Shown here: positions 2,161 through 13,115 of the stretch, piece after piece
How the letters are laid out: each line of letters starts with the position of its first letter
How positions within the stretch are numbered: position 1 is the stretch's first letter
Source: Methanoculleus sediminis
Lineage (GTDB): Archaea > Halobacteriota > Methanomicrobia > Methanomicrobiales > Methanoculleaceae
NCBI RefSeq assembly: GCF_001017125.1
Contig: NZ_JXOJ01000002.1
Location: 105,597 to 160,915, forward strand
Direction: 5' to 3'
DNA: 55,319 nucleotides
Translations under genes and position numbers: made by a program
The notes under the pieces: generated by a model
Told to the model about the DNA's origin: nothing
Seen by the model: the letters and a program-made list of their open reading frames with translations, nothing else
Database searches by the model: none

Positions 2161-3321
2161 CTACGCCAGGTCCTGTGGCTCCCTCACCCTTCCTTCATCC
2201 ACCAGTTCCGTGTAGTCGTCGAACCAGTAGGCCTCCGGGTTGCTCTTATAGACCATGAACCGCCCGAGATCCTCCGGATTTGCCGCCTGGTTGTACTTGA
2301 AGTAGGTGTACCTGTCCGTCTTCCCGAGAACCTCGATCTTCCCGGCCTCATGAGATATCACGAACCGGGCCCGCTTCGCAAGCCCCGAGCAGATCGTGCG
2401 GGCCTGCTCGAATATCCGGTAGGACTCCTCCACCGGCACCGCGAACGTCCTGTTGCCGATCGCCGGACGGCACTGGAAGACGTAGTAAGGGTTCGCGCCG
2501 ATGAACGAAAGTTTGTCGAAGAGTGCGGCAAGCACCTCCGGGTCGTCGTTGATGCCGCGGATCAGGGGCGTCTGGTTCATCACGACCGCTCCGGCGTCCT
2601 GCAGGAGAGCAACCGCCCGGCATGCGGCATCGGTCAGTTCCCTCGGGTGGTTGAACTGCGCCATGATGTAGATCCGCTTCTCGTCCATGCTGTAGTCCCG
2701 GATCATGTCGAGCAGCGCAGGATCGTTGATGATCCGGAACGGATTGTATGCAGGCATCTTCGTGCCGATCCGGATGATCTCGACGTGCTCGATCTCCCGG
2801 ATCTGCCGGACGATATCGAGCAGCCGGCCGGTCTCGAGAACCAGGGGATCGCCCCCCGTGAGAAGGACGTTCGTGATCTCCGGGTGATCCCGGATGTAGG
2901 CAAGCCCCGCGGAGATGTCCTTGTTCACCTCGCGCGCTTCCTCGATGAAGAGGCGCTTGCGGAAACAGTAGCGGCAGAGGCCGCCGCAGATGTCGCTCAC
3001 GAGCAGGAGGGCGGTTTCGCGATATTTATGCTGCAGCCCCGGAGCCCGGGTATACCGGTGCTCCGACGACGGGTCGAGATGCCCCCAGGGTTCGAGTTCC
3101 TCGACGGTCGGCACGATCAGCCGACGGATAGGGTCGGCCGGGTCATCCCAGTCGATCAGCGAGAGGTAGTAGTCGTTCGCACGGAACGCGAAGAGATCGG
3201 TCACCTCCGCAAGGCGGGCGCGCTCCTCCGGACCGATGCCGGGAACCGAATCGAGCGATGTGACGTAGATCGGGTTTTTGGCGCTCCCGATCGTGTTTCG
3301 GATATCGTATGTCGTGTTCAT
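2161..3321 (-). CDS. kamA: KamA-family radical SAM protein (lysine 2,3-aminomutase-like)
   Basis: A 386-residue member of the lysine 2,3-aminomutase family. C112, C116 and C119 in CGGLCRYCFRKR are the cluster ligands, followed by LLTGGDPL. A lysine in SHEAGKIEVLG near the C-terminus sits where the family places its PLP-binding lysine, although the classic PGGGGK motif is absent. Known family members migrate the alpha-amino group of lysine to the beta position; methanogens use this for the osmolyte N-epsilon-acetyl-beta-lysine, with an acetyltransferase (AblB). No ablB is adjacent here, and the C-terminus is shorter than in bacterial enzymes, so the substrate is open. The start at 3321 (MNTTYD) is preferred over an upstream in-frame codon. 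Confidence 0.8.
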   Translation of the reverse strand: MNTTYDIRNTIGSAKNPIYVTSLDSVPGIGPEERARLAEVTDLFAFRANDYYLSLIDWDDPADPIRRLIVPTVEELEPWGHLDPSSEHRYTRAPGLQHKYRETALLLVSDICGGLCRYCFRKRLFIEEAREVNKDISAGLAYIRDHPEITNVLLTGGDPLVLETGRLLDIVRQIREIEHVEIIRIGTKMPAYNPFRIINDPALLDMIRDYSMDEKRIYIMAQFNHPRELTDAACRAVALLQDAGAVVMNQTPLIRGINDDPEVLAALFDKLSFIGANPYYVFQCRPAIGNRTFAVPVEESYRIFEQARTICSGLAKRARFVISHEAGKIEVLGKTDRYTYFKYNQAANPEDLGRFMVYKSNPEAYWFDDYTELVDEGRVREPQDLA

Positions 3322-3544
3322 GGAGTACCTCCCGGCCGACACTCTCCAGTGCAGGATACAATCCGCCAACTGTCGGGGACAGGTGCATGAGAGCAGAGAT
3401 CGAGAATGAAATCCGATCTACGCAAAGGGTTCATGAGAGTTTCATGTTCTCATGCAGGAAACCGTCGCTCCGACATGTGTCATTGAGTGTCGGATTACGT
3501 GTTGTACCTCAAAAGGGTTCTTAGGATATTTATATCTTCGGTTG

Positions 3545-3579
3545 GGGGCGCAATGCTGCAAAGGCAGCGCTTGCTCCCC
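3545..3579. terminator. Strong hairpin downstream of arvC
   Basis: A compact stem with paired blocks GGGG/CCCC, GCAA/TTGC and GCTGC/GCAGC around the loop aaag lies 24 bases beyond the arvC stop. On the minus strand it follows a U-rich run (ggttttaat), so it could end arvC transcription. A TATA-like stretch (gatatttatatc, about 3527-3538) lies just to its left, so a small plus-strand RNA is an alternative. Confidence 0.4.
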
Positions 3580-3602
3580 TATTAAAACCAATAGATCTCG
3601 TA

Positions 3603-3980
3603 TCACTTCTTCTTCTTGGCCATGGAGAGGATATCCACAACGTATTTTCCTTCTTTTTCCAGTCCGACGACGACCTCGTCCGACCGGGCCAGTTTCTCGA
3701 TATTCAGTTCGTACGAACCCGGGCCGAGGATACGGATGCTCTCGATACGTTCGAAGACCTCGATCTCCTCTTTTTTCCGTTGACCCTGCTTGACCTCGAG
3801 CACTTCCTCGCCCGTCTCCCGGGCGATCTCGTCGATGCTCTTCTCCTTCAGCACATCGTCGTGCCGTTCGGCCTCACGGATGTAGAGAAACTTCTTCCCG
3901 CCGCAGCTCGGGCATCCTTTCAGTATCTTCGTCGAACCGTCTTCGAACTCTCTGCCGCATTGTGTACACTTGTGAGGCAT
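3603..3980 (-). CDS. arvC: OapC/ArvC-family zinc-ribbon protein
   Basis: A 125-residue protein with an N-terminal zinc ribbon (CTQC at 5-8 and CPSC at about 23-26), a charged helical middle and a C-terminal beta-rich domain ending in AKKKK. This matches the DUF2072 (OapC/ArvC) family. In Haloferax the oapABC genes were named for lying near a replication origin, and the GTPase of the set (ArvA) was later tied to extracellular vesicle formation; the exact job of C is not established. An RBS (GAGGTGAT) lies 3-10 bases before the ATG. The gene is the last of the arvA-arvB-arvC operon, 20 bases after arvB. Confidence 0.85.
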   Translation of the reverse strand: MPHKCTQCGREFEDGSTKILKGCPSCGGKKFLYIREAERHDDVLKEKSIDEIARETGEEVLEVKQGQRKKEEIEVFERIESIRILGPGSYELNIEKLARSDEVVVGLEKEGKYVVDILSMAKKKK

Positions 3981-4000
3981 AAATCACCTCTGATACCCGT

Positions 4001-4375
4001 TCATCTCGACGAGGAGACCCATGCGCTGATGAGATCCTTCTCCTTCTTGAGCGTCTTGAGCTGGTTGGCGGGCCCGATCACGGTCAACCGGGTCTCGGAG
4101 CGTTTCCCCCCGAGAAGTTTCGCCAGGAACCCGTTTCCGGCATCCCTGATCGGATAGGTCTCCATCTCGATCCCGGAGAATCCGTCCGGCGCGATCTCCC
4201 GCATCGTGATCTCGATGAGCTTGCTCTGCTCGTCCGGCGCGAGCCCCTTCTCCAGGATAACGATGTTTCCTTCCATAACGTCATCGAGGATCAGGCGGAT
4301 CTTCTCCATCGCGGTGAGACGATCGAGACGTTCCGCGGAAATCAGGTCGATTTGTACACCCTGTATCATCTCCAT
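4001..4375 (-). CDS. arvB: OapB/ArvB-family protein (DUF2073)
   Basis: A 124-residue protein of the DUF2073 family, always found beside the ArvA GTPase. It begins MEMIQGVQIDLIS, has a conserved block around GNIVILEKGLAPDEQSKLI, and ends with a domain containing GPANQLKTLKKE. No catalytic motif is visible, which suits a GTPase partner or regulator. A much longer open frame runs upstream in this register but lies inside arvA in another frame and is not real. The ATG at 4375 overlaps the arvA stop (TGATG), giving coupled translation; an ATG at 4369 is an alternative start. Confidence 0.85.
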   Translation of the reverse strand: MEMIQGVQIDLISAERLDRLTAMEKIRLILDDVMEGNIVILEKGLAPDEQSKLIEITMREIAPDGFSGIEMETYPIRDAGNGFLAKLLGGKRSETRLTVIGPANQLKTLKKEKDLISAWVSSSR

Positions 4376-5016
4376 CACCCGAAATATGACGTCATCTGCT
4401 CGTACAACTCTTCCACGTTGTTTCCTTCGAGACCCGATATGGCAATCACGGGGTGCTGGGGAAACGCACTCTTGATCCGCGCGGGAGACGCGTCGGGAAG
4501 ATCGTTTTTGTTTGCAACGATCAGGACCGGGAGTTTCCGGCTCTCGATGATCCCGACAAGCATGATGTTCACCTGCTGGAACGGGTCCAGCGTGGAGTCG
4601 AGCATGTAGATGACGCCGTCGATATCCTCGCGGAGCCAGTGCATCGCCTCGGCGACACCCTCGGTCGCCTCCCGTGCCCGCTTGACCGCCTCCTCCTTCT
4701 CGATGCCGAACTCGATGAACTCGTTGTAGTCGATCTTGGTCGTCACGCCCGGCGTATCGACGATATCGATGGTGATCGAACTGCCGTTCTGGCCCGTGAT
4801 GGTGATATCCTCTTTGCGCCGGACACGCCGGGTTTCGTGAGGTACCTCGCTGACCGGGCCGACCGCATCGCCGACCCAATCCCGCACAATCCGGTTCGCA
4901 AGCGTCGTCTTGCCGGCGTTGGGAGGGCCGTATATCCCGATGCGGCAGGTCCGCTTCTTAAAGAGCGCCTTCAATAGCCCCGAGATCTTTCTTTTCGTAC
5001 GAACTAAGAATGTCAT
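4375..5016 (-). CDS. arvA: Era/Der-like small GTPase ArvA (OapA)
   Basis: A 213-residue small GTPase. G1 (GPPNAGKTT, about residues 30-38), G3 (DTPG, about 88) and G4 (NKND, about 172) are all present. A basic N-terminal helix of about 25 residues precedes the G domain and could contact membrane. In Haloferax the homologue drives production of extracellular vesicles together with ArvB and ArvC; that is family knowledge, not shown by this sequence. The start has a good RBS (GAGGGAGC). Two TATA-like stretches lie upstream on the minus strand, at 5044-5053 and 5073-5090. It heads the arvABC operon. Confidence 0.88.
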   Translation of the reverse strand: MTFLVRTKRKISGLLKALFKKRTCRIGIYGPPNAGKTTLANRIVRDWVGDAVGPVSEVPHETRRVRRKEDITITGQNGSSITIDIVDTPGVTTKIDYNEFIEFGIEKEEAVKRAREATEGVAEAMHWLREDIDGVIYMLDSTLDPFQQVNIMLVGIIESRKLPVLIVANKNDLPDASPARIKSAFPQHPVIAISGLEGNNVEELYEQMTSYFG

Positions 5017-5226
5017 TAAGCTCCCTCAGGTAGGCCGATTTGCCTATACTTAAGTGAGTTGTGGCACTCACAAATAAATATAATTATATGTTCCGTCAGG
5101 CGCATTCTCTCCATTTTGAAGACAAACAACATTCCCGGAGTGAGAGAATTCTTTTATACTGTTGAAACCTAGATAGACTTGCACCTGGAGAATTGGCTCT
5201 AATTGCGGCCAGATTAGGAGAATCCC
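5017..5226. promoter_or_regulatory. Divergent promoter region between arvABC and the CBS cluster
   Basis: The 210-base gap serves both directions. For the minus genes an AT-rich TATA-like run lies at 5073-5090. For the plus genes TTTTATAC at about 5150-5158 is a TATA candidate, giving a start near 5182. Just upstream of it, ATTCTCTC (5104-5111) and GAGAGAAT (5142-5149) form a perfect 8-base inverted repeat with a 30-base spacer, which could be an operator or a looped site. The RBS GGAG is at 5217-5220. Confidence 0.5.
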
Positions 5227-5790
5227 ATGATGAATAATAGCGATGCCATCCGCTTCGAGACACGCATACCAGTCAGGGAGGTCATGCAGAGCCATCCGAC
5301 GACCATCGATGTTGGTGAGACTGTCGCCCGGGCGGCGCAGATCATGTGCCGCGATGAAGTCGGCAGTTGCATTGTGCTGCAGAACAACCTGCCCACCGGG
5401 ATCGTCACGGAGGAGGATATCAACTGCAAAGTCGTGGCTAAAGACTTGAAGCCGGGTGATATTCACGTCAGCGAGATCATGAGCACGCCCCTGATCACAA
5501 TCGGTGCCGACAAGCTGGTCGGGGATGCCGCGGCAATGATGGTGAAGCACCGTGTCCGCAGGCTCCCCGTCGTCGAAGACCAGATGGTCATCGGGATCGT
5601 GACTGTTCGGGACATCCTCACCGTCGCGGCCGAAGTGAACGAACTGCTGGCGGACCTCATAGAAATCAACCGCGAAGAGGAGTATGCCATGGGTGTCTGC
5701 GACCGGTGCGGGAACATCTCCGACGACTTATCAAGGGTCGACAACCTTATGCTCTGCCCCGCCTGTCGGGAGGAGGAGCAGTTGCTATGA
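5227..5790 (+). CDS. CBS-domain pair with C-terminal zinc ribbon
   Basis: A 187-residue cytosolic protein: one CBS pair (about residues 15-70 and 80-135, each opening with a VREVM or VSEIM motif and holding GIVTxxD) and a C-terminal zinc ribbon with CDRC at 158-161 and CPAC at 177-180. CBS pairs bind adenosine ligands such as AMP, ATP or SAM; the ribbon suggests contact with nucleic acid or a protein. It is the first of five consecutive CBS genes, and its stop overlaps the next start (ATGA). The ligand and target are unknown. Confidence 0.9.
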   Translation: MMNNSDAIRFETRIPVREVMQSHPTTIDVGETVARAAQIMCRDEVGSCIVLQNNLPTGIVTEEDINCKVVAKDLKPGDIHVSEIMSTPLITIGADKLVGDAAAMMVKHRVRRLPVVEDQMVIGIVTVRDILTVAAEVNELLADLIEINREEEYAMGVCDRCGNISDDLSRVDNLMLCPACREEEQLL

Positions 5791-6542
5791 AGGTTGCCTC
5801 GGACCTGATGGTGGAGATTCCCACCCTGCATTACGACGATTACGTCACAAAAGCACGGAGCATCCTCCGGGACGACGTCTTTCGCGAACTCTACATCGTG
5901 GACGAAAAGAACCGCCTGAGAGGGTATCTCGACATCTCCGACGTCCTGCGAGTCATGGACACCAAATCGAACGTCACGATCAAAGGGTTCGTCCGGGAGG
6001 CGGCCCGGGTCTCCCGGGATACCCCCCTTGCAGAGGTAGGCGTCGCTATAATGAATGCCCGCACAAACAGCGCTGCGGTAGTCAACGAAGACGGTGTATA
6101 CCAGGGAGGGGTGCTCTTCTCCGAACTCTTCCCCGTCCTGATCTCCCGTCGCACCATCCCCGGCAGGGTCGAGGACGCCATGTCGCGAGAGCCCGTCACC
6201 TGCACACCGGACGAACCCATACACCGCATCTACAGCCTGATCATCGCGAGCGGATTTACCGCGTTTCCGGTGGTGCAGAAGAAAGAGACTATCGGCATAG
6301 TCTCCCGCCGGGATCTCCTGCGCGCCGGGAACGTCCGCATATCGGTGAAGAACCAGGCGGACACCACCGTCGAGCGGGTGATGACGACGCCCGTCATCTC
6401 GGTGACGCCGGACGACACGATAGCAGCGGCGAGCCGGCTGATGGTCGAACACGACGTCAGCATGCTCCCGGTAATCGGCGAGAAAAAGCGGCTCGTCGGC
6501 GTTATCGACCGTCATGACGTTCTCAGCGGCCGGTTGCCCTGA
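5787..6542 (+). CDS. Four-CBS-domain protein
   Basis: A 251-residue protein built only of four CBS units at about residues 1-55, 63-115, 125-180 and 190-248. The last two are the most canonical (VEDAMSREPVT, VERVMTTPVIS, each followed by a GIVSRRD or GVIDRHD strand). There is no catalytic, DNA-binding or membrane segment. The ATG at 5787 overlaps the previous stop and has AGGAGG upstream at 5771-5776; a longer frame starting at 5706 lies inside the previous gene. It is probably co-transcribed with its neighbours, perhaps as a hetero-oligomer partner. Confidence 0.9.
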   Translation: MKVASDLMVEIPTLHYDDYVTKARSILRDDVFRELYIVDEKNRLRGYLDISDVLRVMDTKSNVTIKGFVREAARVSRDTPLAEVGVAIMNARTNSAAVVNEDGVYQGGVLFSELFPVLISRRTIPGRVEDAMSREPVTCTPDEPIHRIYSLIIASGFTAFPVVQKKETIGIVSRRDLLRAGNVRISVKNQADTTVERVMTTPVISVTPDDTIAAASRLMVEHDVSMLPVIGEKKRLVGVIDRHDVLSGRLP

Positions 6543-6581
6543 GAGCGGTTCCGGATACTACGATTCCAGAGGAGTGATATC

Positions 6582-7529
6582 ATGCAACCGAACCCCAATA
6601 ACTCGGATAAAAAACCGGCCGACAGGCTCCTGAAGATGCCGGGCAGACGCGAACGCGGGCCGGTCGATTTCAAGACAAAGATCGCCGGGTATGAAGGCGA
6701 GATCATGGCGATCGCCACGAGAGATGTCGTCGTGGCGCAGCAGACGACCACGATCATCCAGGCAGTCGGGATCATGACCCGGGAAGGGTTCCGCAGGCTG
6801 CCGGTCGTCGACGCGGGGACGCGCCATCTCCGGGGGATCGTAACCGTCGGCGACATCATCAACTTCATGGGCGGCGGCGACAAGTTCAACCTCGTTCAGG
6901 TGAAGCACGGAGGGAACTTCCTTGCGGCCATCAACGAGGGGCTCCGCGAGATCATGACCCCGCACCTGGTCACCATGCCCGTAACCGGCGCCATCGCCGA
7001 CGCGGTCGAGATCATCGTCAACAAAAACATCGGCGGCATCCCCATCACCGACACCGACGGGGAACTGAAGGGTATCGTGACCGAGCGCGACGTGATGAAG
7101 GTGCTCACCACCGAGCACTCGGGCCGCAAGGCGGAGGATATTATGAAACCTTCGGTACGCGTCACCAGCCCCGACACCTCGATCGGCAATGTCTGCCGGG
7201 AGATGGTGCGATGCCGGTTCAGGCGCCTTCCGGTCGTTACAGACGACGTTCTCTGCGGGATCGTTACCGCCACCGATATCATGAGTTATCTCGGGAAGGG
7301 CAAGGCTTTCGAGCAACTGACGACTGGGGACTCCGCCGAGGTCATGGGAGCGCCGGTGCGGTCCCTCCTTTCAGGGGAACTTCACACCATCACGCCCGAC
7401 CGGAACATCCACGACATTGCTCTCGAGATGATCCGGCGGCGTGTCGGGGCGCTCCCGGTCATAGAAGACTCGCACCTTGTCGGCCTCGTGACGGAATACG
7501 ACCTTGTGAAAGCATTTTCTGAGGAGTGA
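6582..7529 (+). CDS. Four-CBS-domain protein with basic N-terminal tail
   Basis: A 315-residue protein. A polar, basic N-terminal tail of about 40 residues (NNSDKKPADRLLKMPGRRER) precedes four CBS units at about 42-100, 123-175, 186-240 and 255-313. Typical signatures are REIMTPHLVTMP, AEDIMKPSVRVT and the closing strand GLVTEYDLV. The tail could bind nucleic acid or a partner; this is inference. The RBS GAGGAGTGAT stands 3-12 bases before the ATG. It is the third gene of the CBS run, 39 bases after the second. Confidence 0.9.
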   Translation: MQPNPNNSDKKPADRLLKMPGRRERGPVDFKTKIAGYEGEIMAIATRDVVVAQQTTTIIQAVGIMTREGFRRLPVVDAGTRHLRGIVTVGDIINFMGGGDKFNLVQVKHGGNFLAAINEGLREIMTPHLVTMPVTGAIADAVEIIVNKNIGGIPITDTDGELKGIVTERDVMKVLTTEHSGRKAEDIMKPSVRVTSPDTSIGNVCREMVRCRFRRLPVVTDDVLCGIVTATDIMSYLGKGKAFEQLTTGDSAEVMGAPVRSLLSGELHTITPDRNIHDIALEMIRRRVGALPVIEDSHLVGLVTEYDLVKAFSEE

Positions 7530-7536
7530 TGCGAAG

Positions 7537-8376
7537 ATGCGTGCCATTGACGTGATGGCGTCTCCGGTGTACGTCGTTGCACCGGGGGATAACGTCGCCT
7601 ATGCGCGAAACCTTATGCTCAAACACCGGGTGTCGAGGCTGCCCGTCATGGAAGGAGACGAACTCCGGGGCATCCTCACCAAGAAGGATATCGCTTACCG
7701 GCTCAGGCAGACGGAACCGATGTGGCGGCGGCGCCCGATCGACCGGATTCCGGTCAGCATCCTGATGGCACCGGAGCCGATCACGATCGCGCCGGAGACC
7801 AGCATCCGCGATATCGCGGCCATCATGCTCGATCGGGACATCTCCGGGATTCCCGTGGTCAACGAAGGAAAGGTGAGCGGCATCGTCACCAAACTGGATC
7901 TGATGCGTTCGGCCCATATCCGCGGGCTCACCGCAAAGGTCGACGAGATCATGGAGGATGCAGTCACGGTCAACCGGTATCACTCGCTCGACCACATCAT
8001 CGACACGATAAAGGGAAAAAACGATAAACTTATTGTCGTAAACGACAATGGAAGCCTTGCCGGCATAATTACGGAGAGTAACCTCGCATTTTACGAGTAT
8101 CTGGACGAGCGGATGAACCTGCCCAAAAAGGATGTTACTCACCTCAGAAAAGAGGGGCCGGCGGGGCAGAAACGCTTCAGATACGTCGTCGAGGTATCGG
8201 CAGTTGCGGAAGACATCATGAGCCGCCCGGTCATTACCGTATCCCCCGATGCATCCCTCCAGGATGCCGTCGGGCTGATGCTGGAGCACCAGATCAACAG
8301 CCTCGTCGTCGTGGAGAACGGTGATATCCGCGGTATGCTCAAGAGAGATGATATCATCAAGGAAGTGGCAAAATGA
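7537..8376 (+). CDS. Four-CBS-domain protein
   Basis: A 279-residue protein made of four CBS units at about 1-55, 70-125, 130-180 and 223-278. Between the third and fourth lies a charged segment of about 40 residues (KKDVTHLRKEGPAGQKR) that breaks the tandem. Motifs include AIDVMASPVYVV, VSILMAPEPITI and AEDIMSRPVITV. It starts 7 bases after the previous stop, with GAGGAGTGAT as RBS, and its stop overlaps the next start (ATGA), so the last three genes are tightly coupled. Confidence 0.9.
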   Translation: MRAIDVMASPVYVVAPGDNVAYARNLMLKHRVSRLPVMEGDELRGILTKKDIAYRLRQTEPMWRRRPIDRIPVSILMAPEPITIAPETSIRDIAAIMLDRDISGIPVVNEGKVSGIVTKLDLMRSAHIRGLTAKVDEIMEDAVTVNRYHSLDHIIDTIKGKNDKLIVVNDNGSLAGIITESNLAFYEYLDERMNLPKKDVTHLRKEGPAGQKRFRYVVEVSAVAEDIMSRPVITVSPDASLQDAVGLMLEHQINSLVVVENGDIRGMLKRDDIIKEVAK

Positions 8377-9155
8377 GCGACAGATTTCAAGTACTCGTCA
8401 AAGACGTGATGGCGAAACCGATCACCATCGCGAAGTCCGCCTTTGTCAGCGAAGCGCTCGATAAGATGCTTGGCGAAGGCGTCGATCCGCTTATCGTGAC
8501 CAACAACGGCACGGTCATCGGAACGACGTCTCGCGCGGCAATCGCCGAGACGCTCGGGAGCAGGAAGACCCAGGCGCTGAAGGCCACATCCATTCATGTC
8601 GCGAACACGGTCGAAGAGAACTTCACCTCCGCGTATCCCGACCAGAGCATCGACGTTCTGGTGCCGCTGCTCCAGCACTACAAGCTGGTCGTGGTCTTTG
8701 ATGCCGAGCACCGCCTGATCGGGCAGGTGACGGCGGGCGACCTCTTGAAGGTGCTCCGCCCGGCGGGCGGCATCCTCGACGTCATGGAACCGGCGCACAC
8801 CATCCAGGGCGAGGAACGCGCCGTCCATCTCCGCCGCAGAATGCTCGACCACGAGATCGACCGGTTCATCGTAGAGGACGGGGACGCCGTCCTCGGCATC
8901 GTCACGGAGACCGACGTCGCAAAGGCGCTTCACGCGCTGAAGGATATCGTGGAGGGGACCCACCAGGACTACCGGATCAGAAATCTCCTCGTGCGGGATA
9001 TCATGACCACGCCGCTCATCTCGGTGGACGCGGACACGGACGTCTCCGACGTCATCGACCTGATGCTCAAGAAGAACATCAGTTCCGTCCCGATCCGGCA
9101 GAACAACAGGATCACGGGCGTCGTGACCCGGAACTCACTCGTCCAGGGCCTGTGA
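8373..9155 (+). CDS. Four-CBS-domain protein, last of the cluster
   Basis: A 260-residue protein with four CBS units at about 8-60, 70-125, 133-187 and 205-258. The second is diverged (the SIHVANTVEENFTSAYPDQS stretch has lost the usual ImT motif), while the fourth is canonical (VRDIMTTPLISVD). There is no other domain. The ATG overlaps the previous stop. A T-rich run just after the gene (9177-9183) is a likely transcription end, which makes 5227-9155 a unit containing only CBS genes. Confidence 0.9.
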   Translation: MSDRFQVLVKDVMAKPITIAKSAFVSEALDKMLGEGVDPLIVTNNGTVIGTTSRAAIAETLGSRKTQALKATSIHVANTVEENFTSAYPDQSIDVLVPLLQHYKLVVVFDAEHRLIGQVTAGDLLKVLRPAGGILDVMEPAHTIQGEERAVHLRRRMLDHEIDRFIVEDGDAVLGIVTETDVAKALHALKDIVEGTHQDYRIRNLLVRDIMTTPLISVDADTDVSDVIDLMLKKNISSVPIRQNNRITGVVTRNSLVQGL

Positions 9156-9864
9156 AGCGGCCGGATACTACTACACTTTTTTTGCGGGCGGCGGGACGGC
9201 CGCGGGGATGTTTGATGTGAAGGCATAGACTTGCCGAGGGCTTGTTGGGACCCTGCTGACTGGGTAAGCGTGGTTCGCACCGAGTGAGGTTGGAATCCTC
9301 TTTCGGTCGGACTTATCCTTGCGCGGATTCATGATGAGTACGCTCTGAGCTGCGGGTCAGTTCCCCGTAAAGTGCTACATTCAAACCCCCAACCAAAGAT
9401 TGGAAGTCTTCGCAAACTCTAGACGTCTCACCCCCCACACCCGCCCCCGGCCTCCTCCATTGCCAATGGGCAGGAAGCAGTACCTGGTGATATGCGAGGG
9501 TTTACAGAATCTGAGCAGGAACACCCAAGTGTGACCTGCAACGTTCTGGTAAGAACAGAGCACAATCGATGTCAGACGAATCGCCAAGTGAAATTGGCGA
9601 CCTATACGGAAGGGGTCAAGGCTGGCGATCATCCCTACCCGAAGGCATGTCACAAAAACTTTTTCCGAGGCTGTCTTGAAATACCTCACAAAAGAGCAGG
9701 ATGAGAGACTTCAACAAAAAAAGGCGCTTTCGTGCCCAGTCCAGATGCTAAACTTTCATTCCCACGTGAAAAACCTACCACTTTTGGATCTTCAAGGGAT
9801 CCAATCAGGGTACGTCCCATGGACGGCAGAAGGTATATATGCGCTTACAATAACCGTGGACTTT
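9156..9864. other. Gene-free start of an AT-rich island
   Basis: After the T-run at 9177-9183 I see no supported gene. Open frames here are short and lack family character. The stretch 9421-9496 is C-rich and then contains GCAGTACCTGGTGATATGCG (9477-9496), which resembles 11940-11959 in the same orientation (16 of 20 bases). A strong TATA-like box (GGTATATAT, 9832-9840) lies at the right end and serves the lipoprotein gene. Confidence 0.5.
9832..9840 (+). promoter_or_regulatory. TATA box of the lipoprotein gene
   Basis: GGTATATAT lies about 25-30 bases before the ATG at 9865, so the transcript would begin within a few bases of the start codon. This favours the 9865 start over the longer in-frame reading from 9676. 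Confidence 0.5.
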
Positions 9865-10305
9865 ATGAATAGGAAAAAATACTGCTCATATATCCTGCTT
9901 CTAGTTGCAGTAAGTACTATACTGTCTGCCGGGTGCATATCAGGCCCGAATGAGGCTCAAAACGACACAAATCTCTCTATATTCCCTACAGTAGCTCCAA
10001 CAACTGACGTTATCTTCACAAACCCACCAGACACCATGTATACTCAACCAAAGTTTACTACCGGCAATGTCATTACAGACAACCCCTCAAACACGTGTAT
10101 AGGACTTGTCGTGTTGAAACCGTCTCCGCCACAGGAGGCATACGTTTTGCGGGAGGCAAATAGATGCATGCCGAATAAATCTTCGTGGACATGGACTGGC
10201 GAACCATTCAGCAGATCTTATGCTGAGATCGATAATGCATATGTCGTGATGGACTACATCACTGACACCAGCACCGTCATAGGCCCAACACGGACAATAC
10301 CATAA
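9865..10305 (+). CDS. Small predicted lipoprotein
   Basis: A 146-residue protein with a typical lipoprotein signal: MNRKK, a hydrophobic stretch, and the lipobox LSAGC with the lipid-attachment Cys at about residue 24. The mature part is Thr/Pro-rich at first and then has no domain I recognise. It is probably anchored on the outer face of the membrane. It lies in DNA clearly richer in A and T than its neighbours, which suggests acquisition. The start is set by the signal peptide and by the TATA box just upstream. Function unknown. Confidence 0.65.
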   Translation: MNRKKYCSYILLLVAVSTILSAGCISGPNEAQNDTNLSIFPTVAPTTDVIFTNPPDTMYTQPKFTTGNVITDNPSNTCIGLVVLKPSPPQEAYVLREANRCMPNKSSWTWTGEPFSRSYAEIDNAYVVMDYITDTSTVIGPTRTIP

Positions 10306-10357
10306 TATCTTAATGTACTACGGGTAGTGCGACTCACAATAGTTAAGCCATCCAGAT

Positions 10358-10389
10358 CCACCTGGTTAACATGTTGTGCCAACAGGTGG
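10358..10389. terminator. Hairpin downstream of the lipoprotein gene
   Basis: CCACCTGGTT (10358-10367) pairs with AACAGGTGG (10381-10389) about 50 bases beyond the lipoprotein stop. It could end that transcript. No strong T-run follows, so the role is uncertain. Confidence 0.35.
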
Positions 10390-10523
10390 AACAACATTAT
10401 CTCAGAAGATAAATAGTCTCCCGAAGCCATCTAGAACTTCACACGGATAAAGTTGTACGTCACCCAAATCCAGCATGTGGCCTGTATAGATTGATTAACA
10501 GCACCCTGGGTACCCTAGAGGAT

Positions 10524-10624
10524 GTCCCAAAAAGCCTAGCCTCTATTATGGCCCGGGTAGCAGAAATTTTGTACATAGTGTTTCTGACCGAGGTACAGCA
10601 AAGATTCGTAAATCCTTTTGGGAC
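10524..10624. mobile_element. MITE-like element with inverted ends
   Basis: GTCCCAAAAAG at 10524-10534 faces CTTTTGGGAC at 10615-10624, giving inverted ends about 100 bases apart with no coding capacity between them. Ends of the GTCCCAAAA type occur on some archaeal insertion sequences, so this may be a non-autonomous derivative or a scar. No target duplication is obvious. Confidence 0.4.
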
Positions 10625-11054
10625 GATCACTTAGATGCATCAGACACGATGTGAAAAAGTACGAGTACGTGCTGCCACATTATCAAGTCAATAGGGTATT
10701 CTACAGCGCTAAGAAGAACAAAGAACTTTGCGGACTAAAGCATCTCCTATTCGCGAAGATGGAGATTCACTCTTCGTTGAACTGTCACATAAAGAGGGTT
10801 CAAGGTGAAGAATCCTCAAACAAGGATATTCGCTATAGAAGTTGAAGAAGTTTGGGTATTACCGTGCGGGATCAGGAGAGGATGCCCCAATACTCCTCGA
10901 CCCGAGAGGGGGACACTCCCTCTTGGCAGAGGAATTTTAGGACGACTTCTACACGGAGTCATCAGCAGTAAGGGCAAACTCCAATGTTTGTCATGAAAGA
11001 CCTTTCAGATTCGGTGTCAGAATCAGGCCCTGTTCAAAAAAAAGAAAATATAAT

Positions 11055-11915
11055 TTAAGCCCATTGAGTATCAGCATAAGACTCTGTTATGAGCTCCTGA
11101 TTGTTTGCTCCGCCCCAGTAGTAGTTGATATGAACATATCTCATACCAGGCGTCTGTTGGAAATATTGCCATACCTCACGCGGTTTCTTCCAGTTACCAG
11201 CATCTTCCCGCACCCATTCGTCAATCACCGGGTACGTGAAAGCTTGAAACTGGCAGGCCAACGGTTCGGCACTGTCCAGACGAAATTCGCTCGACCCGCT
11301 TGCCCTTGTAAAGGTATCGCTCGAGTCATTTTGGTCATAATACACATAGTAAGGGAACCACTGCAGAGTATCCATATCTTCAAACGTTATGTAATATCTA
11401 TTGTTAGATATTTCAACATGATACCCATATGCGTGTGGAAATGTCGTTTTTGGAAGAATAAGAACTCCATCTCCCGGATTTTCCCACTCCTCGATCGGTA
11501 TAGGACCTTGTCCGTTGTCATATACTACCGGAAATAGCATGACATTTCCACTCTCATGGTTATCATTGTAGTTAATCACGACTTCGATAACATCCTGACC
11601 GCCATCCAAGTAGTATTCCCTTTCTTGGTATAGATCAAAGTGATCATTGCCGCTTGTAATCCAATAGGGTTGTGGCGTTATCTGACCAATGCAGTAATCA
11701 TACCATTTCCCAGTATTTATCCGTTCAAAATGAGCCCATTCGTAGAACCAAGAACCACTATCGGTCAGGCATGCACTACTCGATTCAGATGGCTCATCGT
11801 TTATCTCCCGGTTCAATATCAGCGAATTCTGTAGTAAAGCATCATTCTCACTGGGAATAATTTCAAACGAGTCATTATCCCGGTGAACGTGAGAGGTAAG
11901 ATCATCAACACCTGT
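11055..11915 (-). pseudogene. 5'-truncated gene, secreted-type protein remnant
   Basis: The reading frame gives a coherent acidic, Tyr/Trp/Asn-rich polypeptide of about 285 residues (WFYEWAHFERINTGKWYDY, YYLDGGQDVIEVVINYND, YVHINYYWGG) ending in a normal TAA. It has no plausible start codon with an RBS at its N-terminal end. The frame instead runs on into GC-rich DNA at about 11915-12130 that is clearly not part of the protein and contains the promoter of the next gene. The 5' part, including any signal peptide, is therefore missing. The composition suggests an extracellular beta-rich protein. I do not recognise the family. Confidence 0.6.
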
Positions 11916-12149
11916 TGCCCCCACCCACGAGGGGCGGGGGCAGTGCCTGGCGATAGCCGGTGAGAAGCCGTGCACGGTTCTTCTCCGGATTCTCCCCGTG
12001 TAGTGGATCGTGGGGGTATCGCCATTTGGAGAGGGGGGCGCCCCCGACCCGCCACAATGACAGCCCCAAAACCTCCATCCGCCCCGCTCCACCGGACCGG
12101 CACCAACCATTAATACGCCACAATCCGAAATGGATAACAGGATATTTCC
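11916..12149. other. Right edge of the island and deoxyhypusine synthase promoter
   Basis: GC-rich DNA abruptly follows the AT-rich gene remnant. It holds a strong palindrome around CCGTGCACGG (about 11964-11988), the stretch GTGGGGGTATCGCC (about 12010-12024) that resembles the ends of the repeat array at 26875 and 27379, and an ATTAATAC TATA-like box at about 12110 for the next gene. Confidence 0.45.
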
Positions 12150-13115
12150 ATGAAACCAACGCAGCCAGTCAAACCGAACAGGGATGTAACGGCCCTCCTT
12201 GAGTCCATGAGCAGGACCGGCTTTCAGGGGAGAAAACTCGGAGAGTCGCTCGGCATCTGGACCAGAATGGTCTCGGATCCGGACTGCACGATATTCATGG
12301 GACTGTCGGGAGCGATGATCCCGGCAGGTATGCAGAACGTGCTCATCGAACTGGTCAAACACCGTTACGTCGACGTCATCGTCTCGACGGGCGCGAACAT
12401 CTTCCACGACACCTGCGAGCACCTCGGCGTCCGGCACTACCTCGGCCACCACCACGCCGACGACGAGGCGCTCTTTGCGGAAGGGATCGACCGGATATAC
12501 GACGTCTTCGCCTACGAAGAGGAGTTCCGGAGCATCGACGCGGAGATCGCCCGGTTTGCCGACACCATAGCGCCGTTCCGGGGTTCGTCACGGGAGTTCA
12601 TCCGGCTCCTCGGGGACTGGCTCCGCGAGCAGAAGCCGGAAGGACGGTCGCTCGTCGCCACCTGCGCCGAGTACGGCGTCCCGATCTTCATCCCCGCCCT
12701 CTGCGACTCGTCGATCGGGATCGGCCTCGTGATGGCCCGCCGGCGCGGGGTCGACGTCGATGTCGACCAGCTCGCCGATACCGACGAGATCACCCGTATG
12801 GTCGAGGACGCGAAGAAGACCGGCGTCATCTACGTCGGCGGCGGCGTCCCGAAGAACTTCATCCAGCAGACCCAGGTCATCGCGTCGATCCACGACCAGA
12901 ACCTCGGCGGGCACGCCTACGCCATCCAGTACACCACCGACGCGCCCCACTGGGGCGGGCTTTCCGGGTGCACGTTTGAAGAGGCGATCAGCTGGGGCAA
13001 GGAAGCGCCCGCGTGCCCGCGCGTCCAGTGCTTCTGCGACGCCACGATCGCGCTTCCCATCGTCGCATCGGGGCTGATCGGGAGCGGTATCGAGCGCGCT
13101 CGCCGGTCACCCTGA
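12150..13115 (+). CDS. dys: Deoxyhypusine synthase
   Basis: A 321-residue enzyme that transfers the aminobutyl group of spermidine (NAD-dependent) to a lysine of archaeal translation factor aIF5A. The family active-site lysine is K235 in GGGVPKNF, and the NAD-site blocks VSTGANIFHD, HHHADDEAL and GGHAYAIQYTTD are present. Length fits the family. It stands alone between the AT-rich island and the tRNA-Ser gene, with its own TATA-like box upstream. No aIF5A gene is in the window. Confidence 0.95.
   Translation: MKPTQPVKPNRDVTALLESMSRTGFQGRKLGESLGIWTRMVSDPDCTIFMGLSGAMIPAGMQNVLIELVKHRYVDVIVSTGANIFHDTCEHLGVRHYLGHHHADDEALFAEGIDRIYDVFAYEEEFRSIDAEIARFADTIAPFRGSSREFIRLLGDWLREQKPEGRSLVATCAEYGVPIFIPALCDSSIGIGLVMARRRGVDVDVDQLADTDEITRMVEDAKKTGVIYVGGGVPKNFIQQTQVIASIHDQNLGGHAYAIQYTTDAPHWGGLSGCTFEEAISWGKEAPACPRVQCFCDATIALPIVASGLIGSGIERARRSP

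What the first reader, a model, noticed from the sequence alone, without database searches (positions are those of the whole stretch)
5227..9155. Five adjacent CBS-only genes with 18 CBS units
One two-CBS protein with a zinc ribbon and four four-CBS proteins are encoded head to tail with ATGA overlaps, with no enzyme, channel or transporter among them. CBS units normally regulate an attached domain. A transcript made only of them suggests a hetero-oligomeric adenosine-ligand sensor, with the zinc-ribbon member as a possible output to DNA, RNA or a protein.
Basis: partly seen in the sequence, partly recalled or inferred. Interest (0 to 1): 0.65.

Follow-up and report, generated by a model that had tools for sequence, protein, structure and literature searches.

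The report
Archaeal ribosome-hibernation (Sri) gene cluster
Four of these five adjacent genes are the methanogen versions of proteins already solved sitting on archaeal ribosomes, so the cluster is most likely a switch that parks ribosomes when energy is low; the fifth, a zinc-ribbon protein that is always the first gene when present, is an unexplained partner worth testing.

Summary
In detail: five CBS-only genes (2+4+4+4+4 = 18 CBS units, one zinc ribbon) lie head to tail at 5227-9155. Only two of the four junctions are ATGA overlaps. The genes are ancient paralogues (about 20-32% identical), not recent duplicates. Their order is never broken in 140 relative loci, reaching Methanobacteriaceae and Hydrothermarchaeota.

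The identity is largely known. Genes 2-5 fall in four separate clades, each holding a chain solved on a ribosome: PDB 9ZNF, 9ZNG and 9ZNI, Methanosarcina acetivorans 70S with "SriA and SriB", "SriD", "SriC and SriD". They match the published CM-5/4/1/2 CBS-module cluster of proposed hibernation factors (PMC13324472). The CBS module is itself the effector: it occupies the ribosome.

Not described in the text I could read: (i) gene 1 (two CBS plus zinc ribbon) is always first when present and adjoins gene 3 in 103 of 103 Halobacteriota genomes holding both; its acidic ribbon argues against nucleic-acid binding; (ii) outside Methanomicrobiales a Pab1020-type RNA ligase lies downstream on the same strand in 64 of 64 genomes holding both. 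These two are the novel, testable part.

The parts
5144..5161 (+). Promoter-like block GAGAATTCTTTTATACTG (archaeal TATA-type) upstream of g1
   Evidence: Conserved, with few substitutions, in 20 of the 21 aligned sequences of the genus (in L011 that stretch is missing); no expression data
5227..5790 (+). g1: two CBS domains plus C-terminal zinc ribbon; first gene of the cluster; predicted regulator or partner of the Sri proteins
   Evidence: Pfam; always first when present; adjoins g3 in 103/103 Halobacteriota genomes with both; AlphaFold2 model mean pLDDT 86
5698..5766 (+). Zinc ribbon of g1, C158/C161/C177/C180, acidic surroundings
   Evidence: Four Cys invariant in the alignment; net charge never positive in 100 orthologues
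5787..6542 (+). g2: four-CBS module, CM-5 family; orthologue of chain 4 of 9ZNF (SriA or SriB) and related to the N-terminal module of Dri
   Evidence: Profile E 8e-52 to 9znf_4; clade 100/100 with 9znf_4 and Dri-N; model matches 9znf_4 at Z 26.8, rmsd 3.1 over 250 residues
6582..7529 (+). g3: four-CBS module, CM-4 family; orthologue of chain 5 of 9ZNF (SriA or SriB) and of MJ1225; all four ribose-binding motifs kept
   Evidence: E 4e-68 to 9znf_5 and 1e-56 to MJ1225; clade 100/100; motif count
7537..8376 (+). g4: four-CBS module, CM-1 family; orthologue of chain 6 of 9ZNI (SriC) and related to the C-terminal module of Dri
   Evidence: E 7e-60 to 9zni_6; clade 99/95 with 9zni_6 and Dri-C
8092..8205 (+). 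38-residue insert between CBS3 and CBS4 of g4, with the basic motif LRK..G.K..RY shared with SriC and Dri
   Evidence: Alignment to 9zni_6 and Dri; median linker 38 aa in g4 orthologues against 18-23 in g2, g3 and g5
8373..9155 (+). g5: four-CBS module, CM-2 family; orthologue of chain 7 of 9ZNG and 9ZNI (SriD)
   Evidence: E 1e-39 to 9zni_7; clade support 87/73
4375..5016 (-). Divergently transcribed Era-like GTPase, first of a conserved GTPase-OapB-OapC neighbour set (context, not part of the cluster)
   Evidence: Pfam; same divergent arrangement in Methanomicrobiales, Methanocellales and Mnemosynella loci

Best explanation
The cluster encodes the orthologues of the archaeal ribosome-bound CBS-module proteins SriA-SriD (families CM-5, CM-4, CM-1, CM-2) plus a dedicated two-CBS zinc-ribbon protein. 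Most likely mechanism: in starved or stationary cells the four-CBS discs bind the 70S ribosome as two pairs, g2+g3 and g4+g5. They occupy functional sites there (the peptidyl-transferase centre and mRNA channel, by analogy with the related Dri) and so silence and protect the ribosome. Adenine nucleotides bound in the CBS clefts, chiefly of g3 and g1, report the energy state. g1, which keeps both ribose-site motifs and a conserved acidic zinc ribbon, is proposed to regulate loading or release through protein contacts. Shown by databases: orthologues of all four four-CBS proteins sit on a methanogen ribosome, and the cluster order is conserved. Inferred: that the same happens in this organism, that the purpose is hibernation, the nucleotide control, and everything about g1.
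For: PDB chains 9znf_4, 9znf_5, 9zni_6 and 9zni_7 are the best matches of g2, g3, g4 and g5. The three entries hold ribosomal protein uS13 and are titled M. acetivorans 70S with SriA and SriB, SriD, SriC and SriD. A tree of 121 modules puts each window gene in its own clade with the matching ribosome-bound chain; Dri-N joins g2 and Dri-C joins g4 (both Dri rows are long branches). PMC13324472 describes a CM-5/4/1/2 gene cluster and proposes CM-1/2/4/5 as hibernation factors that rarely co-occur with HibA; no HPF/RaiA match passes the cut-off in this genome. g4 carries the CBS3-CBS4 loop seen in Dri and SriC. In Methanolobus the cluster is split into g2-g3 and g1-g4-g5, matching the two PDB pairs, and Methanococcoides vulcani has a fused g3-g4 protein. 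Units with the ribose-site motif kept in 80% or more of orthologues: g1 2/2, g3 4/4, g4 2/4, g2 and g5 1/4.
Against: No experiment exists in this organism. The paper behind the Sri structures was not in the library, so its functional data were not seen. g5's clade is less supported (87/73). In HibA, AMP and ATP bind but did not clearly change ribosome binding, so nucleotide gating is unproven. g1 has not been seen on a ribosome, and in some Halobacteriota (family f10) it stands alone without the other genes.
Confidence: 0.85

Rival explanations
1. The five proteins form one soluble hetero-oligomeric adenosine-ligand sensor whose output is the zinc-ribbon protein acting on DNA, RNA or a protein.
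For: Strict co-linearity of all five genes; nucleotide-site motifs kept in g1 and g3; invariant zinc ligands.
Against: Orthologues of g2-g5 are solved on the ribosome, and no g1 orthologue is among the PDB chains. The zinc ribbon is never net positive, unlike a typical nucleic-acid binder. g3 and g5 persist without g1 in gut methanogens.
Confidence: 0.08
2. The four-CBS proteins are AMPK-gamma-like energy sensors that regulate metabolic enzymes, as MJ1225 was first viewed; ribosome binding is secondary.
For: g3 is close to MJ1225 (E 1e-56); the g2 model also matches AMPK gamma (Z about 20-21); g3 keeps all four ribose-site motifs.
Against: No kinase or metabolic enzyme is encoded in the cluster; the g3 orthologue is itself on the ribosome in 9ZNF; a distinct family, CM-6, is the one reported to cluster with AMPK gamma.
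Confidence: 0.05
3. g1 is functionally unrelated to hibernation (for example a redox or metal sensor like the Ta0289 CBS-rubredoxin-like protein) and its place in the cluster is only shared expression. This concerns g1 alone and can hold together with the best explanation for g2-g5.
For: Ta0289 is a solved CBS plus metal-ribbon protein and the g1 CBS pair fits it at Z 17.4, rmsd 2.1 over 126 residues; g1 is alone in some genomes.
Against: g1 adjoins g3 in 103 of 103 Halobacteriota genomes with both, is always the first gene when present, and is missing together with g2 and g4 from gut Methanobrevibacter loci, with no full-length g1 elsewhere in those genomes.
Confidence: 0.3

Closest known systems
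SriA, SriB, SriC and SriD of Methanosarcina acetivorans (PDB 9ZNF, 9ZNG, 9ZNI)
   Same: Four-CBS stand-alone modules, one-to-one clades with g2-g5; Methanosarcina relatives have the same gene order; bound to the 70S ribosome in two pairs
   Different: Another order of methanogens; no g1 orthologue is found among the PDB chains; binding not tested for the window proteins
CM-5/4/1/2 CBS-module cluster of PMC13324472 (proposed hibernation factors; clustering in about 10% of archaeal genomes)
   Same: Same four families in the same order
   Different: The readable main text does not mention zinc or an RNA ligase; figures and supplements could not be checked
Dri of Pyrobaculum calidifontis (PDB 9E6Q, 9E7F)
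   Same: N-terminal module groups with g2, C-terminal module with g4, including the CBS3-CBS4 loop
   Different: One fused eight-CBS protein instead of separate proteins
HibA (CBS module plus HPF/RaiA domain)
   Same: Four-CBS disc on the ribosome; binds AMP (Kd about 12 uM)
   Different: Window proteins have no HPF/RaiA domain
MJ1225 of Methanocaldococcus jannaschii (PDB 3KH5, 3LFZ)
   Same: Same clade as g3; gamma-AMPK-like fold
   Different: In the Methanocaldococcus loci read here it stands without the other cluster genes beside it
Ta0289 CBS plus rubredoxin-like protein (PDB 1PVM, 2QH1)
   Same: Two CBS domains plus a C-terminal metal ribbon, like g1
   Different: Structural alignment supports only the CBS part; orthology not shown

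Membership tests
Sri/Dri-type stand-alone CBS-module ribosome factors (CM-5, CM-4, CM-1, CM-2) | Four tandem CBS domains with no other domain | tested here: met
   Pfam for g2-g5; predicted fold of g2
Sri/Dri-type stand-alone CBS-module ribosome factors (CM-5, CM-4, CM-1, CM-2) | Each protein falls in the clade of a ribosome-bound member | tested here: met
   Tree: g2 100/100, g3 100/100, g4 99/95, g5 87/73
Sri/Dri-type stand-alone CBS-module ribosome factors (CM-5, CM-4, CM-1, CM-2) | Gene order CM-5/4/1/2 | tested here: met
   g2-g3-g4-g5; order never violated in 140 loci
Sri/Dri-type stand-alone CBS-module ribosome factors (CM-5, CM-4, CM-1, CM-2) | Long CBS3-CBS4 loop in the CM-1 member | tested here: met
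   38-residue insert in g4 aligned to 9zni_6 and Dri
Sri/Dri-type stand-alone CBS-module ribosome factors (CM-5, CM-4, CM-1, CM-2) | Rare co-occurrence with HibA or HPF/RaiA proteins | tested here: inconclusive
   No significant PF02482 match in the genome, but the Pfam model may miss distant archaeal HPF domains
Sri/Dri-type stand-alone CBS-module ribosome factors (CM-5, CM-4, CM-1, CM-2) | Physical binding to the ribosome | not testable with these tools
   Known only for the M. acetivorans orthologues (PDB titles)
HibA | HPF/RaiA domain fused to the CBS module | tested here: not met
   No such domain in g1-g5
AMPK-gamma-like sensors (MJ1225) | Adenine-nucleotide site residues kept | tested here: met
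   g3 keeps [ST]xxD in all four CBS units, 81-100% of orthologues
AMPK-gamma-like sensors (MJ1225) | Acts through a kinase partner | not tested
   No kinase encoded in the cluster
Ta0289-type CBS plus metal-ribbon proteins (for g1) | Two CBS domains followed by a four-cysteine ribbon | tested here: met
Ta0289-type CBS plus metal-ribbon proteins (for g1) | Common descent of the whole protein, ribbon included | tested here: inconclusive
   Structural alignment covers residues 12-137 only; the Foldseek match over the full length has rmsd above 20 A

The most novel reading that the evidence does not exclude
The archaeal ribosome-dormancy locus is larger than described: besides the four ribosome-bound CBS modules it includes a dedicated zinc-ribbon CBS regulator (g1) and, outside Methanomicrobiales, a Pab1020-type RNA ligase, making it a ribosome preservation and RNA-repair (or RNA-circularisation) operon controlled by adenine nucleotides.
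Probability: 0.35. Interest if true: 0.75.

Novelty: new member of a known kind. Interest (0 to 1): 0.5.

Why it matters
Genes 2-5 turn from unexplained CBS-only genes into members of a ribosome-dormancy system whose structures were released in January 2026, here in another methanogen order. The unexplained parts are directly testable. Gene 1 has near-perfect linkage yet no known role. The Pab1020-type RNA ligase, whose cellular role is still unsettled to my knowledge, is linked to the same cluster in every sampled Halobacteriota genome that has both, which points to RNA maintenance in dormant ribosomes.

Tried and rejected
Recent tandem duplication: rejected by about 20-32% identity and by clades older than the spread of the cluster over several lineages. 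A regulatory RNA in or near the cluster: no Rfam match in 3000-12200. HPF/RaiA-type hibernation factor in this genome: no match over the cut-off. RNA ligase in this genome: none. Zinc ribbon as nucleic-acid binder: not favoured because it is never net positive, though charge alone is not proof. g3 in the seven genus-g68 genomes searched: no match at E 1e-40; of these, two were read and show g1-g4-g5 (L091, L118). By contrast four named Methanolobus genomes have g2-g3 at one locus and g5 on another contig, with g1-g4-g5 together in three of them and g1-g3-g4-g5 in the fourth. Ligase genes in seven genomes without the cluster: none lies beside a CBS gene of these families. The Sri publication was not found and a paper on Pab1020 substrates that I tried is not held. 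In the fold search for g1 the CBS part fills the list, so the ribbon's fold was not tested on its own.

Full report
CHECK OF THE OBSERVATION. The window holds five ORFs on the + strand: g1 5227-5790, g2 5787-6542, g3 6582-7529, g4 7537-8376 and g5 8373-9155. Pfam finds CBS domains in all of them, with no enzyme, channel or transporter domain. Seventeen of the genome's 47 significant CBS matches lie here, and the predicted fold of g2 supplies the missing unit, so the count of 18 is right. The statement about ATGA overlaps is half right: g1/g2 and g4/g5 overlap, while g2/g3 are 39 nt and g3/g4 7 nt apart. The paralogues share only about 20-32% identity in long alignments.

CONSERVATION. g1 is found in 58 of 61 near relatives and g4 in 144 of 199 genomes of the class at E 1e-20. 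Across 20 fetched Methanomicrobiales loci the order is always g1-g2-g3-g4-g5, with g2 and/or g4 missing in some. The same order recurs in other classes of the phylum and, in named genomes, in Methanosarcina, Methanothrix, Methanoperedens, Methanocellales, Mnemosynella, Methanobacteriaceae and Hydrothermarchaeum. In 140 loci scored together no rearrangement occurs; 66 have all five genes and the rest are ordered subsets, apart from one locus in which the last gene was labelled g3 by a narrow margin and which the tree puts with g5. In 157 Halobacteriota genomes at least 90% complete, g1 and g3 adjoin in 103 of 103 genomes with both (from the places). Family f9 of the phylum and Methanothermococcus loci keep only g1-g3; gut Methanobrevibacter loci keep only g3-g5, and a genome-wide search finds no full-length g1 there.

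IDENTITY. Searches of PDB sequences give each four-CBS gene its own best chain: g2 to 9znf_4, g3 to 9znf_5, g4 to 9zni_6, g5 to 9zni_7. The three entries also contain uS13. Titles shown by the structural aligner read M. acetivorans 70S ribosome in complex with SriA and SriB (9ZNF), SriD (9ZNG), and SriC and SriD (9ZNI). From the chain sets, g5 corresponds to SriD and g4 to SriC; g2 and g3 are SriA and SriB in an order I could not read. A maximum-likelihood tree of 121 modules places every window gene in a separate clade with its ribosome-bound counterpart, Dri-N with g2, Dri-C with g4 and MJ1225 with g3 (the two Dri rows are long branches, so their places are less sure). PMC13324472 names six CBS-module families and a CM-5/4/1/2 cluster, and proposes CM-1/2/4/5 as hibernation factors alternative to HibA. 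The order here matches. The match of g2-g5 to CM-5/4/1/2 rests on Dri (CM-5 and CM-1), the published order and the clades; the paper's own profiles were not available.

MECHANISM. What is shown for relatives: the modules occupy the ribosome. What the sequence here adds: g4 has the 38-residue basic loop between CBS3 and CBS4 that SriC and Dri share. The ribose-site motif [ST]xxD is kept in 2/2 CBS units of g1 and 4/4 of g3, but in only some units of g2, g4 and g5. Two natural arrangements support the pairs seen in the PDB entries: Methanolobus splits the cluster into g2-g3 and g1-g4-g5, and Methanococcoides vulcani has a g3-g4 fusion beside an intact cluster elsewhere in its genome; the fusion joins members of different pairs, so it speaks for association of the modules in general. 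I infer nucleotide-tuned ribosome parking; HibA binds AMP but no clear effect of nucleotides on its ribosome binding was reported, so the tuning step is a hypothesis.

GENE 1. It has two CBS domains and a ribbon with four invariant cysteines, an AlphaFold2 model of mean pLDDT 86, and no orthologue among PDB chains. Its ribbon is never net positive in 100 orthologues, which argues against direct DNA or RNA contact. Its linkage, and its absence together with g2 and g4 in gut Methanobrevibacter, suggest a regulatory protein of the same system; in some Methanomicrobiales, however, g1 stays when g2 and g4 are gone. This is an inference.

RNA LIGASE. Outside Methanomicrobiales a ligase with the Pab1020 C-terminal domain (PF18330 plus PF09414) often follows the cluster: 64 of 64 Halobacteriota genomes that have the ligase and g1 or g3 carry it downstream on the same strand within 8.5 kb, and 46 of 100 loci with room have it within 60 nt of the last CBS gene. 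Thirty genomes outside the order have the cluster and no ligase, and eight have the ligase and no cluster. The window's own genome lacks it. The main text of PMC13324472 does not contain the word ligase. Which RNAs it acts on in these cells was not established here.

VERDICT. A real, ancient and largely explained cluster: a new member of a known kind. Interest 0.5, carried mostly by g1 and the ligase link.

Noticed in passing
L094, L099, L140, L164 and 60 further loci, downstream of the CBS cluster: A Pab1020-type RNA ligase gene follows the cluster on the same strand in every sampled Halobacteriota genome that has both; absent from the window's genome.
   Followed up: yes
window 3603-5016, - strand: Era-like GTPase, OapB and OapC genes lie divergently next to g1, an arrangement kept across Methanomicrobiales and in Methanocellales and Mnemosynella loci.
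   Followed up: partly
L174:5812-7692: Methanococcoides vulcani has a 627-aa fusion of g3 and g4, a Dri-like eight-CBS protein, in a second copy of the cluster.
   Followed up: partly
L116:5900-7165 and L117:6206-7468: In two genomes close to Methanosarcina g1 is duplicated and fused to itself (CBS-CBS-ribbon twice).
   Followed up: no
L206:1967-2824 (G000 contig C9): Another stand-alone CBS-module protein (286 aa) elsewhere in the genome scores about equally with g4, g2 and g3; perhaps of the CM-3 (HhpR) kind.
   Followed up: no
L102, L115, L120: In one family of the phylum (f10) g1 stands alone between a predicted phosphoglycerate-mutase-like gene and a RadA-like gene (names from recall of the N-termini, not tested).
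   Followed up: no
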